This document shows, piece after piece, positions 8,261-14,482 of a stretch of DNA of 64,000 bases. The DNA comes from Verrucomicrobiota bacterium (GTDB lineage: Bacteria; Verrucomicrobiota; Verrucomicrobiia; JABWAM01), in the NCBI GenBank assembly GCA_023269615.1, contig JAHFSY010000008.1:1-64000 (forward strand), given 5' to 3'. How positions within the stretch are numbered: position 1 is the stretch's first letter; each line of letters starts with the position of its first letter. The notes beneath the pieces are model-generated. The model did not search any database and was not told the origin of the DNA. It saw only the letters and a program-made list of their open reading frames with translations. The position numbers and the translations under genes were made by a program.

Positions 8261-9181
8261 ATGTTCTCCTTTTCCACCTGCTGGAATTCAGGCTCGCACA
8301 CGGATGGCGAGGCCATGATGAATGAAATCCGCGCGCTCGGCTTTTCCACCGTCGAGCTCAGCCACGGCATCCGCCTGAGCCTCGTCGAGGGAATCGAGCG
8401 GGCGATCAGCAAGGATCCTCAATTCCGCGTCTCGAGCCTGCACAATTTCTGCCCGCTTCCGGTCGGCTTCCTCCATGCCGCGCCCAACGCGTACCTGTTG
8501 TCGGCCACCACCGAGAACGAGCGTCAGAAGGCGATCCGACACACCATGACCACCCTGGATTTCGCGGCGAAAATGAAGGCTCGGTTCGTGGTCCTGCATT
8601 TTGGTTCCGTTCCCATGGGCGATTATACCGGCGATCTCGTGAAGCTGATCTGCGAAGGGCAACGTGACACCCCGAAATACAAAAAACTCCTCGAAAAATC
8701 GCTCGCCAAACGCAAGGCCAAGGGTGCAAAGCCGTTTGCCCAAAGCATGAAAAGTCTGGAAGTACTCGCAAAGGCCGCGGGCGAGCGCGGCATCCGGCTC
8801 GGCATCGAGAGCCGCTATCGCCTTGAGGAAATTCCAACCGAGGATGAGTTCGACGAAATCTTCCGCACGTTTCCCGCCGCGCAGGTCGGCTACTGGCATG
8901 ACACCGGGCACTCGCAAACCTGGCACAACCTGGGAATCACCGACCACGTCCAATGGCTGAAAAAATTCGAGCCCCGCATCATCGGTTGCCACCTGCACGA
9001 CCTCACCCATCCAAACCACGACCATCAGATTCCCGGCGATGGCATGGTTCCATTCGACCAGCTCACCGCGCTGCACCGCCCCGACGTCCTGAAGGTGTTT
9101 GAATTTGAACCCGGCATGCCAGCCGATGCGTTAAAAACACGCCTCCCTCCTTTCATGTCCTCATTTGAAACCACGCGTTGA
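8261..9181 (+). CDS. Sugar phosphate isomerase/epimerase family TIM-barrel protein
   Basis: The 306-residue protein fits the AP-endonuclease-2/xylose-isomerase-like TIM barrel. It opens with FSFSTCWNSG, has LHNFCPLPVG, then RFVVLHFGS, IRLGIESRYRLEEIP, GYWHDTGHSQTW, IIGCHLHDLTHPNHDHQIPG and VFEFEPG. Glu, Asp and His residues at the strand ends would bind the divalent metal. The family includes epimerases, isomerases and dehydratases of sugars and polyols; the exact substrate cannot be read from sequence. It ends 2 bases before the next start, so the two are probably co-transcribed. Confidence 0.8.
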   Translation: MFSFSTCWNSGSHTDGEAMMNEIRALGFSTVELSHGIRLSLVEGIERAISKDPQFRVSSLHNFCPLPVGFLHAAPNAYLLSATTENERQKAIRHTMTTLDFAAKMKARFVVLHFGSVPMGDYTGDLVKLICEGQRDTPKYKKLLEKSLAKRKAKGAKPFAQSMKSLEVLAKAAGERGIRLGIESRYRLEEIPTEDEFDEIFRTFPAAQVGYWHDTGHSQTWHNLGITDHVQWLKKFEPRIIGCHLHDLTHPNHDHQIPGDGMVPFDQLTALHRPDVLKVFEFEPGMPADALKTRLPPFMSSFETTR

Positions 9182-9183
9182 CG

Positions 9184-10188
9184 ATGAAAAAAAAACACGT
9201 TTTTGTCCTCGTCAAATTTTGCGTCACCGTCGCAGTCGTCTGGTATGTCTTTCACACCCTGGGTGAAAATGGGCGCGCGAGTCTCTGGAACAATCTGCGT
9301 TCGGCGAAGCCTTCGGGGCTCGCCCTGGCTTTCCTTGCATGCCTTGGTGGAATGACGCTCGGCATTCTGCGCTGGCGGATGCTCCTGCGCGTGCAGGGGA
9401 TTCTGCTCAGCGGTTACCAGGTCACGTGGATCACGGCCACGGGGTCATTCTTCAACACCTTCCTTCCGGGCGGGACGGGTGGCGACGTGATGAAGGCGTG
9501 GTATGCCGCCGAGGCCGCGCCCGACCGCAAGCCACAGGCGGTGTTGAGCATCGTGGTGGACCGCATCATCGGCCTGATGGGGCTGATCATTCTCGTCTTC
9601 GTGGTGATGTTGATGAACCTGAAACTGGTGATGGATCAGGAGCGCACACGACATCTGGCGGCCTCGCTCGGATTCATGCTCGTTTCCGTCGTCGTTGCCG
9701 CCATGCTGGGCACTCAGCGGCGACGTTTCACTGCTTTCCCCTGGTGGGGCAGGGTCTGGCGCTTTGTTCCCGGCAAGAACATCCTCGTCCGCCTCGGCGA
9801 ATCTTTCGACATGTACCAGCACCACCCCCGCGTTCTCATGATGGCACTGCTTCTTTCCGTCGGGGTTCATGCCTTGATGTGCATACTTGCATGGCAGGTT
9901 GGCGGCGCAATCGGGATCCAGGGCGTGGACATCCGTCATTACTTCGCCTATTTCCCGTTGATCAACACCATTTCAGCCGGTTCCCCGACCCCGATGGGGG
10001 TGGGCGTGCGCGAGTGGGCGTGCATGTTTTTCTTTGATGTGCATCACGTTCCAAAGCCCCAGTCGGTGGCCCTCGCGTGGCTCTACCTCGCCACGCTCAT
10101 CGCGGTCAACATTCTCTCAGGCGTGTTGTTCTTCCTCGGGAAACCGAGGTCATGGTCCAGCCCGCCCAAGGATGGGCAAATGGTCTGA
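9184..10188 (+). CDS. Lysylphosphatidylglycerol synthase TM-like/UPF0104 membrane protein
   Basis: A 334-residue polytopic membrane protein with about eight helices and the family motifs FLPGGTGGDVMKAWY and PTPMGVGVREW. Relatives include AglD/YbhN and the membrane half of MprF, linked to lipid or polyprenyl-glycan flipping. The ATG at 9184 lies 2 bases after the stop of the preceding gene; a TTG at 9178 would overlap it. Cargo is unknown. Confidence 0.8.
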   Translation: MKKKHVFVLVKFCVTVAVVWYVFHTLGENGRASLWNNLRSAKPSGLALAFLACLGGMTLGILRWRMLLRVQGILLSGYQVTWITATGSFFNTFLPGGTGGDVMKAWYAAEAAPDRKPQAVLSIVVDRIIGLMGLIILVFVVMLMNLKLVMDQERTRHLAASLGFMLVSVVVAAMLGTQRRRFTAFPWWGRVWRFVPGKNILVRLGESFDMYQHHPRVLMMALLLSVGVHALMCILAWQVGGAIGIQGVDIRHYFAYFPLINTISAGSPTPMGVGVREWACMFFFDVHHVPKPQSVALAWLYLATLIAVNILSGVLFFLGKPRSWSSPPKDGQMV

Positions 10189-12108: not shown

Positions 12109-12699
12109 TTACTTCCGCTTGAAAAGAAATGGCTCCCAATCCGGGATGCCGTGCGTGTTGCGAATGGAAAGCGTCACGGGAACCTCCGGCGGGGTCTTTG
12201 GCAACGCCAGCAGCTTGAGCCCGGCCTCCTGCGGCAGGCGGTTCCCCTTCTTGCTATTGATCTCCTTGCTGGCCCAGACGCAGTTGTCCCACGTCGTCTT
12301 TCCACCGCGCGAGCGGGGAACGACGTGGTCCACATTCCCTTCATCCGGGCGGAGCACCCGCCCCGTGTACTGGCAGCGGCTTCCATCGCGCTCGCGGAGC
12401 GTGCGCGCCGAGAGCTTGGGCCGTGTGCGCGGGACCTTGGCAAAATTGGCGAGCACGATCACCGTGGGCACGCGCACCGGGCCCCGCGTGGTCATGACAA
12501 CATTATCCTGCTCGCGGATGGGGAGGATGAGCCAGTCTTTCCAGCGGACGGGCGACATCACGTCCTCCGACTCGATGTCGAGGGCGGTGGCCACATCGGT
12601 CGCCATCTGGCAAAAGGCATCGGCAGGCGTTCGAACATGGATCGCCTGCCAGTTGCGGTTGAGCACCAGCACGGTGGCTTTGTTGAGCACATCATTCAT
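12109..12699 (-). CDS. HNH endonuclease
   Basis: This 196-residue protein has an HNH nuclease core in its second half: GSRCQYTG, then NVDHVVPRSRGGKTTWDNCV, then ASKEINSKKGNR, giving the expected Asp-His, Asn and Lys/Asn positions. The N-terminal half (LVLNRNWQAIHVRTPADAF) is typical of a widespread HNH subfamily of unknown cellular role. Only one zinc-type Cys pair is evident. It is the first protein gene downstream of the tRNA array on the same strand, 258 bases after the tRNA-Gln gene, so read-through from the array is possible. Confidence 0.85.
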   Translation of the reverse strand: MNDVLNKATVLVLNRNWQAIHVRTPADAFCQMATDVATALDIESEDVMSPVRWKDWLILPIREQDNVVMTTRGPVRVPTVIVLANFAKVPRTRPKLSARTLRERDGSRCQYTGRVLRPDEGNVDHVVPRSRGGKTTWDNCVWASKEINSKKGNRLPQEAGLKLLALPKTPPEVPVTLSIRNTHGIPDWEPFLFKRK

Positions 12700-12957: not shown

Positions 12958-13032
12958 TGGCTGCCGAGCATGGATTCGCACCATGATCTTCCCGTTCAAA
13001 GCGGGATGTCCTGCTGGTTGGACGACTCGGCA
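12958..13032 (-). tRNA. tRNA-Gln (anticodon TTG), variant elbow
   Basis: The 75-nt cloverleaf has acceptor TGCCGAG/CTCGGCA, discriminator G and encoded CCA. Its D arm is GTCC-AACCAGCA-GGAC, the anticodon loop CTTTGAA sits on TCCCG/CGGGA, and the T arm is CATGG-TGCGAAT-CCATG. The D loop has A18-G19 and the T loop G55-C56, instead of G18-G19 and U55-C56. It is the last gene of the minus-strand array. Confidence 0.85.
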
Positions 13033-13080
13033 GAAGGGATCAATCTCAAATTTCAAATTTGAAATCTCAAATCTGCAAAA

Positions 13081-13172
13081 TGGCGGAGCGCCGTGGACTT
13101 GCGCCACATCCCGCAACAGCGGGACGATCGGTTTAGCAAACCGTCCCGGCACGCTGGTCCGGTTGACGCTCC
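13081..13172 (-). tRNA. tRNA-Ser (anticodon GCT), variant elbow
   Basis: The 92-nt gene has the long variable arm expected of serine (CGTCCCG/CGGGAT), acceptor GGAGCGT/GCGCTCC, discriminator G, encoded CCA and loop TTGCTAA. Its D loop is ACCAGCGTG (A18-G19) and its T loop CGCAAGT (G55-C56). Position 8 is C rather than U. Confidence 0.85.
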
Positions 13173-13195
13173 GGGGAACATTTCAAATCTCGAAG

Positions 13196-13271
13196 TGGAT
13201 CCGGCGACAGGATTTGCACCCGCATGCTCCTTATTACAAGTAAGGCGCCTTTCTAGTTCGGCCACACCGGA
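13196..13271 (-). tRNA. tRNA-Thr (anticodon TGT), variant elbow
   Basis: The 76-nt cloverleaf has acceptor TCCGGTG/CGCCGGA, discriminator T, encoded CCA, D arm GCCG-AACTAGAA-AGGC, anticodon loop CTTGTAA on CCTTA/TAAGG, and T arm GCGGG-TGCAAAT-CCTGT. It shows A18-G19 and G55-C56. Confidence 0.87.
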
Positions 13272-13277
13272 GAAAAA

Positions 13278-13368
13278 TGGCGGAAGCCGGAGGTCATGCT
13301 CCCCATCCCCTCAAAGGGGACATTCCGCTTTCGAGGCGGTTCGGGCGCGCTTGTCCCGTTCAACTTTC
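13278..13368 (-). tRNA. tRNA-Ser (anticodon CGA), degenerate variant elbow
   Basis: This 91-nt gene has a long variable arm (TCCCC/GGGGA), anticodon loop CTCGAAA on CCGC/GCGG and encoded GCCA end. The acceptor (GAAAGTT/GGCTTCC) has one A-C mismatch and two G-U pairs, and the outer T-stem pair is mismatched. The D loop is ACAAGCGCG and the T loop AGCATGA (G55-C56). It is the weakest fold of the array. Confidence 0.65.
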
Positions 13369-13376
13369 ATGAAAAT

Positions 13377-13452
13377 TGGTCGCTCCGGCCTGATTTGCAC
13401 AGGCATCTCGCGGCTTATGAAGCCGGCGCACGGCTCGTTGTGCTACGGAGCG
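13377..13452 (-). tRNA. tRNA-Met-type (anticodon CAT), variant elbow
   Basis: The 76-nt cloverleaf has acceptor CGCTCCG/CGGAGCG, discriminator A, encoded CCA, D arm GCAC-AACGAGCC-GTGC, loop TTCATAA, and T arm GCCTG-TGCAAAT-CAGGC. A paired C1-G72 and no GGG/CCC anticodon stem argue against the initiator. Elongator Met or lysidine-modified Ile cannot be separated here. It shows A18-G19 and G55-C56. Confidence 0.83.
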
Positions 13453-13460
13453 CACTATAT

Positions 13461-13557
13461 AACGCGGAACGTGGAACGCGGAGCGCGGAATAAGTTCGGA
13501 AGAAAGAAATTCTCCTTCTCGGAAATTCCGCGTTCCGCGTTCCATACTCCGCGTTTG
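13461..13557. repeat. Inverted repeat of AACGCGGAACGCGG units
   Basis: Left copies (AACGCGGAACGTGGAACGCG) and right copies (ATTCCGCGTTCCGCGTTCCA) form an imperfect long hairpin between the Met and Ala tRNA genes. A related copy lies inside the acyl-CoA reductase gene at 50355-50388. Confidence 0.65.
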
Positions 13558-13560
13558 AAA

Positions 13561-13639
13561 TGGTGGACCGTGTCGGTAATGCTCCGACCTGTGATCCTCA
13601 TTGCAAGTGAGGCGACCACTCTATGCAGTCGCACGGCCC
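13561..13639 (-). tRNA. tRNA-Ala (anticodon TGC), variant elbow
   Basis: The 79-nt cloverleaf has acceptor GGGCCGT/ACGGTCC, which contains the G3-U70 wobble that marks alanine tRNAs, discriminator A and encoded CCA. Anticodon loop CTTGCAA sits on CCTCA/TGAGG. Its D loop GCATAGAGT holds A18-G19 and its T loop AGCATTA holds G55-C56. Position 8 is G. Confidence 0.85.
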
Positions 13640-13644
13640 GAAAT

Positions 13645-13719
13645 TGGTGCGGCACGAGGGAGTTGCACCCTCACGATCTGTTTGGAAGACAGGGATGCTG
13701 GCTGTTACATCAGTGCCGC
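13645..13719 (-). tRNA. tRNA-Gly (anticodon TCC), variant elbow
   Basis: The 75-nt cloverleaf has acceptor GCGGCAC/GTGCCGC, discriminator A, encoded CCA, D arm ATGT-AACAGCCA-GCAT, loop CTTCCAA, and T arm GAGGG-TGCAACT-CCCTC. The GTGC T-loop start equals that known from staphylococcal peptidoglycan tRNA-Gly. Confidence 0.87.
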
Positions 13720-13727
13720 AATAGAAA

Positions 13728-13803
13728 TGGACGCGCACCCGGGACTCGCACCCGGTAAAGCGGCTTTGCAGACCGCCGGTTCGACGACTTTGCCTTGTGC
13801 GCG
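13728..13803 (-). tRNA. tRNA-Cys (anticodon GCA), variant elbow
   Basis: The 76-nt gene has acceptor CGCGCAC/GTGCGCG, discriminator U73 (the cysteine identity base), encoded CCA, loop CTGCAAA on GCGGT/GCCGC, and T arm CCGGG-TGCGAGT-CCCGG with G55-C56. The D arm is poorly paired, and position 8 is A. Confidence 0.82.
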
Positions 13804-13845
13804 GGAAAATACCTCCAAAGAAGCGATCCGCCGTTTGGGTTGTAA

Positions 13846-13874
13846 CCAGCAGCTAGAAGCCAGTGGCCAGCAGC
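13846..13874. repeat. CCAGCAGCTAGAAGCCAG-type repeat
   Basis: A copy of the short element also found at 8128-8158, 20634-20664 and 20762-20789. It lies in the spacer between the His and Cys tRNA genes. Confidence 0.6.
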
Positions 13875-13886
13875 CCGTTCCCGAGA

Positions 13887-13960
13887 TGGTCAGGTGTGCG
13901 GGTTATGCTCCCGCTCCTTCCGGTTCACAGCCGAAAATGCAGCTACTACACCAACACCTG
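13887..13960 (-). tRNA. tRNA-His-like (anticodon GTG), variant elbow
   Basis: The 74-nt cloverleaf has acceptor CAGGTGT/ACACCTG, discriminator A, encoded CCA, loop CTGTGAA on TTCGG/CCGGA, and T arm GCGGG-AGCATAA-CCCGC. The usual histidine marks, an extra G at -1 and C73, are absent. The D loop AGTAGCT has A18-G19 and the T loop G55-C56. Charging by HisRS is therefore uncertain. Confidence 0.8.
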
Positions 13961-13971
13961 GTTTGAAAGAG

Positions 13972-14110
13972 TTGGTTGCGGACCAGTTCTGGCCAACCTC
14001 CTTGGAAGTCACACATTTTGTCGCTCTATCTCTGCCGAACCCGTACAGGTTCGCTGTTGTTCTCACGAATGAAACGTGTTGCACGGGTCACCCCGCGCCA
14101 CCGCAACCAA
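13972..14110 (-). ncRNA. Unassigned structured element inside tRNA array
   Basis: A 139-nt stretch is bounded by a perfect 10-bp inverted repeat (TTGGTTGCGG / CCGCAACCAA). On the minus strand it can form GCGCGGG-GTGA-CCCGTGC (a GNRA-type tetraloop), CACG-TTTCATT-CGTG and CGAACC-TGTACG-GGTTCG hairpins. The second resembles an anticodon arm whose loop would read TCA. No T arm or CCA end could be placed, so it is not called a tRNA. It may be a degenerate or interrupted tRNA or another small RNA. Confidence 0.35.
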
Positions 14111-14201
14111 AATCGTTTGAACTGCATTCCGCAATCCGACCCGCGCTACGCCGGAGGCTTCGGCGAGGCGAGAATCCGCACTCCGAAATCCGCGATTCTG
14201 A

Positions 14202-14278
14202 TGGTGCTCCCACCAGGACTTGCACCTGGAACCTCTTCCTTCGCAGGGAAGCGTGCAGATCTGTTACACCTTGGGAGC
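14202..14278 (-). tRNA. tRNA-Arg (anticodon GCG), variant elbow
   Basis: The 77-nt cloverleaf has acceptor GCTCCCA/TGGGAGC, discriminator A, encoded CCA, loop CTGCGAA on a perfect CTTCC/GGAAG stem, and T arm CCAGG-TGCAAGT-CCTGG. It shows A18-G19 and G55-C56. A GCG anticodon is unusual, because bacteria normally read CGC with an ACG anticodon edited to inosine. Confidence 0.85.
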
Positions 14279-14284
14279 GGAAAA

Positions 14285-14359
14285 TGGTGGAGGATGAAGG
14301 ATTCGCACCCTCAACAACCGAATGTAAATCGGCCATGATACATATTTCACCAATCCTCC
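14285..14359 (-). tRNA. tRNA-Val (anticodon TAC), variant elbow
   Basis: The 75-nt cloverleaf has acceptor GGAGGAT/ATCCTCC, discriminator A, encoded CCA, D arm GTGA-AATATGTA-TCAT, loop TTTACAT, and T arm GAGGG-TGCGAAT-CCTTC. The T loop has G55-C56; here position 18 reads T, not A. Confidence 0.85.
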
Positions 14360-14407
14360 TGGGAGCTGTAAGCCATAAGCTTTAAGCCGCAAGTTTACTC
14401 TTGAAAC

Positions 14408-14482
14408 TGGTCCGTCGCCCCGGTACTGCCCCAGGTGTCTCCTGGTCCCAGGCCAGGCGGATTGCTTTCTTCCTCGCAACGG
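14408..14482 (-). tRNA. tRNA-Pro-like (anticodon TGG), degenerate variant elbow
   Basis: The 75-nt gene has acceptor CCGTTGC/GCGACGG, discriminator A, encoded CCA, anticodon stem CCTGG/CCAGG and T arm CCTGG-GGCAGTA-CCGGG. Its anticodon loop is CCTGGGA, with C instead of the universal U33, and the T loop has G54-G55-C56 and G58. It is the first gene of the array on the minus strand. Confidence 0.7.

What the first reader, a model, noticed from the sequence alone, without database searches (positions are those of the whole stretch)
12958..14482. Twelve-gene tRNA array in which every T loop carries G55-C56 instead of U55-C56
All twelve genes (Pro, Val, Arg, His, Cys, Gly, Ala, Met, Ser-CGA, Thr, Ser-GCT, Gln) fold as cloverleaves with encoded CCA, yet none has the T-loop TTC. 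The loops read TGCGAAT, TGCAAAT, AGCATTA and similar, always G55-C56. Pseudouridine 55 is almost universal in elongator tRNAs. The same GUGC start is known from staphylococcal tRNA-Gly that feeds peptidoglycan synthesis rather than the ribosome. Twelve isotypes sharing the change in one cluster suggests a specialised tRNA set: possibly non-ribosomal donors, decoys for tRNA-cutting effectors, or a lineage-wide shift. Identity marks (Ala G3-U70, Cys U73) remain, so charging is plausible.
Basis: partly seen in the sequence, partly recalled or inferred. Interest (0 to 1): 0.93.

Follow-up and report, generated by a model that had tools for sequence, protein, structure and literature searches.

The report
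Backup tRNA set with rewired elbow
A run of 13 extra transfer-RNA genes in a bacterium of the Verrucomicrobiota, and similar runs of up to about 35 in relatives and in some viral sequences, carry a swap at the bend of the molecule, a spot that is almost the same in other tRNAs; they are likely a reserve tRNA set that would keep protein synthesis going when the normal tRNAs are damaged.

Summary
The run has 13 tRNAs, not 12 (Trp was missed), all with G55-C56; 41 of the genome's 42 other tRNAs have U55-C56. Relatives carry such arrays: 546 of 570 cloverleaves at the loci examined have G55, and the elbow covaries (A18 with G55, G18 with U55; also 19-56, 54-58, 8-14) while anticodons and most charging marks are kept. 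In 80 relatives' loci one HNH-nuclease gene lies downstream of the tRNAs on the same strand (494 G55 tRNAs upstream, 0 elsewhere), and many loci hold Ro60, RtcB or SPFH genes, an RNA-repair set. HNH-linked arrays on plasmids and phages mostly keep U55, but four metagenomic viral contigs carry sets of 29-34 G55 tRNAs. In the window's order the only tRNA-Phe found also has A18/G55, even in a relative without a known array, so this elbow very likely works on the ribosome. Best reading: a reserve tRNA set tied to RNA repair, its elbow switched set-wide, predicted to escape enzymes that read G18-Psi55. Use in translation and escape are inferred. The window's own locus is small, and its genome shows no Ro60 or RtcB.

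The parts
   Evidence: this stretch is 92% identical in G002
14408..14482 (-). tRNA-Pro(TGG), T loop GGCAGTA, C1-G72, A73
14285..14359 (-). tRNA-Val(TAC), T loop TGCGAAT
14202..14278 (-). tRNA-Arg(GCG), T loop TGCAAGT
13972..14110 (-). Structured non-tRNA RNA, 10-bp closing stem, fold z-score -4.4; no Rfam family; faint match in the same slot of G002's array
13887..13960 (-). tRNA-His(GTG), T loop AGCATAA; A73 instead of the C73 seen in 17 of 20 array His genes
13728..13803 (-). tRNA-Cys(GCA), T loop TGCGAGT, U73
13645..13719 (-). tRNA-Gly(TCC), T loop TGCAACT, A73 (own housekeeping tRNA-Gly have U73)
13561..13639 (-). tRNA-Ala(TGC), T loop AGCATTA, G3-U70
13377..13452 (-). tRNA-Met(CAT), T loop TGCAAAT
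13278..13368 (-). tRNA-Ser(CGA), T loop AGCATGA; weakest fold of the set
   Evidence: read by hand
13196..13271 (-). tRNA-Thr(TGT), T loop TGCAAAT, U73
13081..13172 (-). tRNA-Ser(GCT), T loop CGCAAGT, long variable arm
12958..13032 (-). tRNA-Gln(TTG), T loop TGCGAAT, U1-A72, G73
12109..12699 (-). HNH endonuclease gene (196 aa, P0001), 258 bases downstream of the last tRNA; its homologues lie at the 3' end of the relatives' arrays

Best explanation
The 13 tRNA genes, all with G55-C56, and the HNH-nuclease gene downstream of them likely form a reserve tRNA cassette whose tRNAs would be charged by the cell's own synthetases and would carry translation when the normal tRNAs are cut or depleted, their changed elbow being predicted to keep them out of reach of enzymes that recognise the normal one. 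Shown here: the genes and their G55-C56; kept anticodons and most identity marks in relatives; set-wide coupling of A18 with G55 and of other tertiary pairs, so these RNAs very likely keep the L shape by another set of contacts; fixed polarity with the HNH gene at the 3' end in verrucomicrobial loci; Ro60, RtcB and SPFH genes inside or beside many of these arrays; TruB present in the genome; and A18/G55 in the only tRNA-Phe found in the window's order. Inferred: transcription under stress, charging, use on the ribosome, and the reason for the switch. The mechanism I commit to: without U55, and mostly without G18, these tRNAs cannot receive Psi55 or (mostly) Gm18, and the elbow face read by ribotoxins, by modification enzymes and possibly by a Ro60/Y-RNA clearance branch would differ, so the set can be made next to damaged housekeeping tRNAs without being processed like them. 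The HNH protein would act on DNA, most likely to spread or reshuffle the array. The window's copy is a reduced one, without the repair genes.
For: Array versus rest of genome: 13 of 13 against 1 of 42. All 13 have a closer match among other arrays' tRNAs (0.64-0.92) than among the 42 own housekeeping tRNAs (0.54-0.70) (the array pool is more than ten times larger, and Val, 0.68 against 0.65, hardly differs). Relatives: G023 has 33 cloverleaves (32 with G55), G001 25 (24), G002 14 plus 5 (all); the single-contig genome G135 has 29 of 29, followed by an HNH gene. At the loci examined 546 of 570 cloverleaves have G55. Covariation: 54-58 is U-A 356, A-U 71, G-G 54 of 546, 0 of 500 shuffles as high, also within isotypes; 8-14 is U-A 208, A-U 41, G-G 8 of 276; of the D-loop positions the one counted as 19 has the highest mutual information with 56 in 7- and in 8-base loops (0 of 200). 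The shuffles ignore kinship. Plasmid, phage and viral loci (540 tRNAs): U55 with GG 371, G55 with AG 141, G55 with GG 15, U55 without GG 9, other 4. Stems within 25 anticodon groups: 2092 compensated against 332 one-sided and 147 unpaired cells (the finder demands good stems). Identity marks: Ala G3-U70 12 of 13, Cys(GCA) U73 26 of 27, Asn U1-A72 with G73 22 of 22, Pro C1-G72 25 of 26, Lys A73 58 of 58, His C73 17 of 20, Gln U1-A72 47 of 57. RNA-repair genes in the 80 HNH loci (1,146 kb): RtcB 29 (28 on the array strand), Ro60 21 (all), SPFH 15 (all); none in 50 control loci of only 147 kb. Y-RNA-like hits at the start of the Ro60 gene in 2 of 7 loci scanned. TruB in 28 of 28 genomes. tRNA-Phe with A18/G55 in all 5 tRNA-Phe loci fetched from the window's order and in 0 of 19 from other families; in G003 all 41 tRNAs found were typed: one tRNA-Phe, A18/G55, and 40 others, all U55. 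A published parallel: the Anabaena trn operon is silent, switched on by translational stress, and shares its repressor with rtcB, slipin and HNH genes (PMC10272220, passages).
Against: No expression, charging or ribosome data exist here for any G55 array. The window's genome (94.8% complete) has no Ro60 and no RtcB by profile, and Ro60 was found in 0 of 28 near genomes, so the repair link rests on other relatives; 25 of 54 array loci have RtcB and 20 of 54 Ro60, so it is not universal. Not all identity marks hold: array tRNA-Gly has U73 in only 12 of 32, and tRNA-Phe A73 in 11 of 20. The window's set covers 12 amino acids; its tRNA-His has lost C73 and its tRNA-Ser(CGA) folds imperfectly, which may be early decay. 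26 of 80 HNH loci show no G55 tRNA by my finder: 9 of these have under 3 kb upstream, and one (L106) has two hits with the covariance model, but others have 10 kb and none. HNH-linked arrays on plasmids and phages mostly keep U55 (143 of 148 tRNAs in six arrays), so the elbow switch is not needed for whatever such arrays do. No elbow-reading enemy enzyme was identified here.
Confidence: 0.5

Rival explanations
1. A mobile, self-spreading tRNA array with an HNH homing-type nuclease. The tRNAs are ordinary and used now and then; the A18/G55 elbow is a near-neutral alternative that spread through the array by conversion or chance.
For: Patchy distribution: with a strict T-arm pattern, 12 of 387 genomes of the phylum have three or more hits on one strand, all 12 in the window's class. 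HNH genes are the commonest coding genes of mycobacterial arrays and are discussed there as drivers of repertoire change (PMC5966550, passages). The HNH domain is closest to Cas9/IscB and Geobacter nicking HNH domains. Gene order differs between relatives. A18/G55 also arose in a housekeeping tRNA-Phe, so it can arise without an array.
Against: Neutral drift does not readily explain a near set-wide switch (29 of 29, 34 of 37, 32 of 35, 29 of 30 in viral contigs), nor the switch in at least two separate HNH lineages, nor co-location with Ro60, RtcB and SPFH.
Confidence: 0.25
2. Decoys: the array RNAs soak up or jam tRNA-cutting effectors and need not work in translation.
For: Phages are proposed to use their own tRNAs against host tRNA-cutting defences (PMC10264068, abstract). 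Many arrays sit beside repair genes.
Against: Decoys for an elbow reader should keep the normal elbow, not change it. Identity marks, anticodons and encoded CCA are mostly kept across loci (CCA was required by the finder), more than a decoy needs.
Confidence: 0.1
3. Non-ribosomal aminoacyl donors, as known for staphylococcal tRNA-Gly in peptidoglycan synthesis.
For: The elbow change recalls the staphylococcal case (recalled; not confirmed in my searches). An LPG-synthase-like transmembrane gene lies at 9178-10188 in the window.
Against: All 20 amino-acid types occur in G55 form across loci with ordinary anticodons; no aminoacyl-transferase family recurs among the families shown for 87 array-internal proteins (25 of 45 families shown; GNAT twice); the only tRNA-Phe found in G003 has the same elbow.
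Confidence: 0.06
4. Decaying pseudogenes of an old array.
For: The window's tRNA-His lacks C73, its tRNA-Ser(CGA) has stem mismatches, the set is small and the repair genes are absent.
Against: 12 of 13 have every acceptor and T-stem pair and all encode CCA. Matches to the arrays of G001, G002 and G023 lie on the tRNA genes, 71-92% identical, while other spacer matches are to short dispersed repeats. Relatives show extensive compensation.
Confidence: 0.05

Closest known systems
tRNA array units (Mycobacterium chromosomes, plasmids and phages)
   Same: Dense co-directional run of many isotypes, redundant with the housekeeping set, with an HNH gene; an M. intracellulare plasmid array (L157) holds a homologue of the window's HNH protein.
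   Different: Those loops are U55 (28 of 28 in L157) and the HNH gene lies within the run. The window has 13 genes, under the 20 named in PMC5966550.
Anabaena trn operon and the TrcR regulon
   Same: Second tRNA set, silent until translational stress; rtcB, slipin and HNH genes under the same repressor (PMC10272220, passages).
   Different: The array checked here from another Nostoc (PCC 7524 plasmid, L156) is U55 in 19 of 20; I did not look at Anabaena's own loops, nor for TrcR in Verrucomicrobiota.
RNA-repair operon with RtcB, Rsr/Ro60 and Y RNA
   Same: Ro60, RtcB and Y-RNA-like genes lie together in some of the relatives' array loci.
   Different: The published operon has RtcA and RtcR (PMC7790460, start of abstract); no tRNA array is named in what I saw. 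Here tRNAs, HNH and SPFH are added. The window's locus has none of the repair genes.
Phage tRNAs that evade tRNA-cutting defences
   Same: An extra tRNA set proposed to replace tRNAs cut by the host (PMC10264068, abstract; PMC11555353, listing).
   Different: Reported changes are in the anticodon loop; here the change is in the elbow and spans the set.
Staphylococcal tRNA-Gly for peptidoglycan synthesis
   Different: One isotype there, all isotypes here; not confirmed in my literature searches.

Membership tests
tRNA array unit (usage of PMC5966550) | 20 or more tRNA genes in one dense run | tested here: not met
   13 in 1.6 kb in the window; met in relatives: 33 in L074, 29 in L243
tRNA array unit (usage of PMC5966550) | Isotypes redundant with the housekeeping set | tested here: met
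   Housekeeping tRNAs for all 12 amino acids of the array are among the 42
Canonical elongator tRNA | Cloverleaf with CCA and isotype identity marks | tested here: met
   tRNA-His, tRNA-Gly and tRNA-Ser(CGA) of the window are partial exceptions
Canonical elongator tRNA | G18-Psi55 elbow contact | tested here: not met
   G55 in 13 of 13; A18 in most D loops; Psi55 is called universally conserved (PMC4810234, passages)
Canonical elongator tRNA | 19-56 tertiary pair | tested here: met
   Mostly G19-C56, elsewhere covarying, in relatives
RNA-repair locus (Ro60, Y RNA, RtcB) | Ro60 and RtcB in or beside the locus | tested here: not met
   Own genome 0 and 0; in relatives' loci Ro60 in 21 and RtcB in 29 of 80
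Anabaena-type stress-induced tRNA operon | Silenced normally, induced by translational stress | not testable with these tools
   No expression data
Non-ribosomal donor tRNA | Does not serve the ribosome | tested here: inconclusive
   Same elbow in the only tRNA-Phe found in G000 and G003 argues against; no biochemical test
HNH endonuclease (PF01844, PF13395, PF14279) | Profile match over the cut-off | tested here: met
   all three over cut-off; fold matches listed are to HNH domains

The most novel reading that the evidence does not exclude
A second tRNA set with its own elbow code: A18-G55 replaces G18-Psi55 across all isotypes and acts as a password that separates reserve tRNAs from damaged housekeeping tRNAs, so that ribotoxins, elbow-reading modification enzymes and the Ro60/Y-RNA clearance branch act on one set and spare the other; the code arose separately in Verrucomicrobiota and in large phages.
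Probability: 0.3. Interest if true: 0.95.

Novelty: new variant of a known kind. Interest (0 to 1): 0.86.

Why it matters
Psi55 with G18 is treated as a near-universal feature of tRNA (PMC4810234, PMC7912444, passages). Here whole tRNA sets have replaced it by A18 with G55, with natural covariation at 18-55, 19-56, 54-58 and 8-14 in hundreds of genes, and in one order of bacteria a housekeeping tRNA-Phe has done the same. That gives a natural experiment on which elbow contacts the ribosome, EF-Tu, RNase P and the modification enzymes really need. It also makes an old question, what large bacterial and phage tRNA arrays are for, testable: many sit with Ro60, RtcB, SPFH and HNH genes, and their elbow predicts which enzymes should spare them.

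Tried and rejected
Genome-wide shift: rejected, 41 of 42 other tRNAs are U55. Loss of TruB as the cause: rejected, TruB in 28 of 28 genomes. Chance T loops: rejected. Recent duplication of own housekeeping tRNAs: not supported, all 13 have a nearer match in other arrays (with the pool-size caveat above; the Ser-CGA row there used slightly wrong ends). Window RNA 13972-14110 as a tRNA, tRNA-Sec or Y RNA: no Rfam match; unexplained. HNH as a known RNA-guided nuclease: only the HNH domain matches Cas9/IscB (the N-terminal part is modelled with low confidence), so no claim is made. Two named phages were checked because of Ro60 or HNH matches: Myxococcus phage Mx1 (5 of 5 U55) and Virus Rctr197k (40 of 40 U55). 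A tRNA-by-tRNA phylogeny was not made; the claim of separate switches rests on the HNH tree, whose labels come from counts in partial loci. My tRNA finder needs an encoded CCA and near-perfect stems, so counts are lower bounds (it missed, for example, the Trp gene of G002 that one search matches) and stem pairing is partly selected for.
Full report
1. The observation. On the - strand between 14556 and 12958 there are 13 tRNA genes: Trp, Pro, Val, Arg, His, Cys, Gly, Ala, Met, Ser-CGA, Thr, Ser-GCT, Gln. All 13 encode CCA and all have G55-C56. The D loops lack the usual G18-G19; most read A18-G19 (Gln AACCAGCA, Gly AACAGCCA), Val reads U18-G19. ARAGORN sees 7 of the 13 and Rfam 6 at its cut-off, which is why such sets are easily overlooked.

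2. The rest of the genome. Rfam tRNA finds 47 matches in the genome, 5 in the array and 42 elsewhere. I fetched and typed all 42: 41 have T loops starting TTC. The exception is the only tRNA-Phe(GAA) found, TGCGATT with D loop AGTAGTA, the same A18/G55 combination. 13 of 13 against 1 of 42 has p = 9.6e-12. The gene for TruB, which makes Psi55, is present in this and in all 28 genomes searched.

3. Relatives. Array DNA matches in G001 and G002 (same family) and in G023 (another family of the class) lie on the tRNA genes, 71-92% identical; other spacer matches are to short dispersed repeats. The regions hold 25, 14 plus 5 and 33 cloverleaves by my finder, 75 of 77 with G55. G023's set covers 18 amino acids. 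Three further genomes, G135 (single contig), G360 and G214, have 29 of 29, 25 of 25 and 9 of 9 G55, and the match to an HNH protein (42-43% identical) begins 95, 211 and 165 bases after the last tRNA found. A strict pattern for one T-arm type, run over 387 genomes of the phylum, gives three or more hits on one strand in 12, all in the window's class. The order of isotypes differs between genomes. All 13 window tRNAs have a closer match in some other array than among the 42 own housekeeping tRNAs (the array pool is far larger).

4. The HNH gene. A 196-aa HNH endonuclease (12109-12699, -) follows the array after 258 bases. Homologues 74% and 59% identical follow the arrays of G023 and G001; in G001 about 8 kb of other genes lie between the main run and the HNH gene, with one more tRNA beside it. 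A scan of named genomes gave 259 relatives, of which the best 80 were kept, all Verrucomicrobiota by title. In these 80 loci my finder saw 494 G55 tRNAs, all upstream of the HNH gene on its strand, none downstream and none on the other strand; 54 loci have at least one and 46 at least three. The gap from the last tRNA found to the HNH gene runs from 33 to 7529 bases. Of the 26 without, 9 have under 3 kb of upstream sequence and L106 has two covariance-model hits. More distant HNH homologues (32-44%) occur in most of 28 near genomes, including genomes in which searches show no array, so the family is wider than the arrays. The model of the protein (mean pLDDT 78, N-terminal part weaker) has, among the 50 listed matches, HNH domains of Cas9-type and nicking enzymes (by sequence also IscB).

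5. The elbow is rewired, not broken. Over the window, four stretches of relatives and 79 named loci (L076 left out as a copy of L074), the finder gave 570 cloverleaves: 477 with G55-C56, 69 with G55 and another base at 56, 20 with U55-C56 and 4 others. All 20 U55 genes have GG in the D loop. With C56, 460 of 477 have AG somewhere in the D loop (57 also have GG); in 7- and 8-base D loops, where 18-19 can be counted from the 3' end, 194 of 233 are A18-G19. Where 56 is not C, position 19 tends to change with it. 54-58 covaries (U-A 356, A-U 71, G-G 54 of 546; mutual information 0.84 against 0.013 shuffled and 0.08 shuffled within isotypes; 0 of 500), and 8-14 shows the same three types (U-A 208, A-U 41, G-G 8 of 276). 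Stems vary with compensation: 75 genes of one layout have 98.5% of pair cells paired with 606 double changes, against 184 in shuffles (the rows were chosen as good folds and are of mixed isotypes); within 25 anticodon groups there are 2092 compensated, 332 one-sided and 147 unpaired cells (same caveat). Kinship is not removed in these counts. A covariance model of the array tRNAs also matches housekeeping tRNAs; the best of those is the odd tRNA-Phe, 64.0 bits.

6. Charging marks are mostly kept. Among 546 G55 genes: Ala G3-U70 12 of 13, Cys(GCA) U73 26 of 27, Asn U1-A72 and G73 22 of 22, Gln U1-A72 47 of 57, Pro C1-G72 25 of 26, Lys A73 58 of 58, Ser G73 with a long arm 11 of 11, Asp G73 11 of 11, His C73 17 of 20. 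Against: Gly has U73 in 12 of 32, Phe A73 in 11 of 20. The link of these marks to synthetases is general knowledge. Oddities: tRNA-Leu mostly has a 5-base variable loop (45 of 51), and tRNA-Ile(UAU) has a 23-24-base variable region in 11 of 11.

7. A natural test in the housekeeping set. tRNA-Phe with A18/G55 was found in five of six genomes of the window's order (G000-G003, G005); in the sixth, G004 (76% complete), the only match fetched is a tRNA-Met. Of the other 25 loci fetched, 19 are tRNA-Phe, all U55 with GG, and 6 are tRNA-Met. The second-best matches in G001, G002, G003 and G005 are tRNA-Met. Unless another tRNA-Phe is hidden in assembly gaps, an A18/G55 tRNA decodes all Phe codons there, so this elbow is compatible with translation.

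8. RNA repair. Of 87 protein genes lying inside the arrays, 14 match TROVE (Ro60/Rsr), 8 RtcB, 7 Band_7/SPFH and 1 RlaP. In all 80 HNH loci RtcB homologues occur in 29 (28 on the array strand), Ro60 in 21 (all), SPFH in 15 (all); 50 control loci have none, but they hold only 147 kb against 1,146 kb. Y-RNA-like matches were found in 2 of 7 loci scanned, at or just before the start of the Ro60 frame: RF01656 at 39.4 and 38.4 bits (cut-off 38) in L090 and L088; in L090 also RF02553 YrlA at 36.7 and 29.8 bits, below its cut-off of 69 (E 1.3e-6 and 1.3e-4). That RF01656, a nematode sRNA family, belongs to the stem-bulge RNAs related to Y RNAs is recalled. The window's genome has neither Ro60 nor RtcB by profile, and Ro60 is absent from all 28 near genomes searched.

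9. Plasmids, phages and viral contigs. HNH homologues on plasmids and phages often lie in tRNA arrays: 6 of 10 fetched loci have 15-31 tRNAs, 143 of 148 U55; there the HNH gene is usually inside the run rather than at its end. Of 40 IMG/VR loci, four (L234, L236, L239, L240) have 29 of 29, 34 of 37, 32 of 35 and 29 of 30 G55 tRNAs with A18-G19 D loops, mostly without encoded CCA; L202, with an HNH 66% identical to the window's, has 15 of 18. L236 and L239 each have three U55 tRNAs, two of them Met. L239 also has a Ro60 homologue. These contigs are viral by the collection's label; I did not verify them as viruses. Over 52 plasmid, phage and viral loci (540 tRNAs): U55 with GG 371, G55 with AG 141, G55 with GG 15 (GG was tested first), U55 without GG 9, other 4. 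On an HNH tree of 91 rows (thinned from 129) three of the four phage-like G55 loci (L240 is not on the tree) group with two U55 loci, apart from the Verrucomicrobiota, and a clade of viral loci, five of 17 with U55 tRNAs, lies among the verrucomicrobial ones, so the set-wide switch happened more than once or arrays changed partners.

10. What is known. tRNA array units with HNH genes are described in mycobacteria (PMC5966550, passages; PMC12803027, passages, which calls them a putative antidefense system). The Anabaena trn operon is induced by translational stress, and its repressor TrcR also controls rtcB, slipin and HNH genes (PMC10272220, passages). Three systems with interspaced tRNA arrays, some with nucleases, are noted in PMC10910872 (passage). 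Phage tRNAs are proposed to evade tRNA-cutting defences by anticodon-loop changes (PMC10264068, abstract). Psi55 is called universally conserved (PMC4810234, passages). Searches that could have shown a set-wide elbow change, or Verrucomicrobia with tRNA arrays, listed none (best-ranked titles only, open-access papers only).

11. Reading. The best-supported account is a reserve tRNA set tied to RNA repair, with a switched elbow. Shown: sequence, covariation, polarity, gene company. Inferred: expression under damage, charging, translation, escape from elbow readers. The window's own locus is a small, perhaps ageing member.

Noticed in passing
L022; L166-L170; G003: The only housekeeping tRNA-Phe(GAA) found in the window's order has A18/G55; tRNA-Phe loci fetched from other families of the class have the usual G18/U55.
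   Followed up: yes
window 13972-14110 (-): A stable non-tRNA RNA inside the array (10-bp closing stem, z -4.4), no Rfam family; a faint match (E 0.14) sits in the same slot of G002's array (L071 13613-13745).
   Followed up: partly
L074, L072 and other array loci: Array tRNA-Leu mostly has a short 5-base variable loop (45 of 51), while array tRNA-Ile(UAU) has a 23-24-base variable region in 11 of 11.
   Followed up: partly
L234, L236, L239, L240: Viral contigs with large tRNA sets almost all G55; in L236 and L239 the Met tRNAs keep U55 with GG.
   Followed up: partly
window about 14136-14173: A dispersed repeat between tRNA-Arg and the structured RNA, with many copies elsewhere in this genome and its relatives.
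   Followed up: no
window 13458-13557: Long imperfect palindrome between tRNA-Met and tRNA-Ala.
   Followed up: no
L082:5028-5870, L090:4650-5480, L111:5173-5826 and homologues: Recurring array-internal proteins without any Pfam family (clusters of 4, 2 and 2 among 87).
   Followed up: no
window 9178-10188 (+): LPG-synthase-like transmembrane gene near the array; not seen as a recurring array partner.
   Followed up: no
G000:C22:3485-3508 and G000:C37:10720-10743: T-arm and acceptor ends identical to those of tRNA-Ala(CGC) and tRNA-Gly(CCC) where Rfam lists no tRNA; perhaps integration-site remnants.
   Followed up: no
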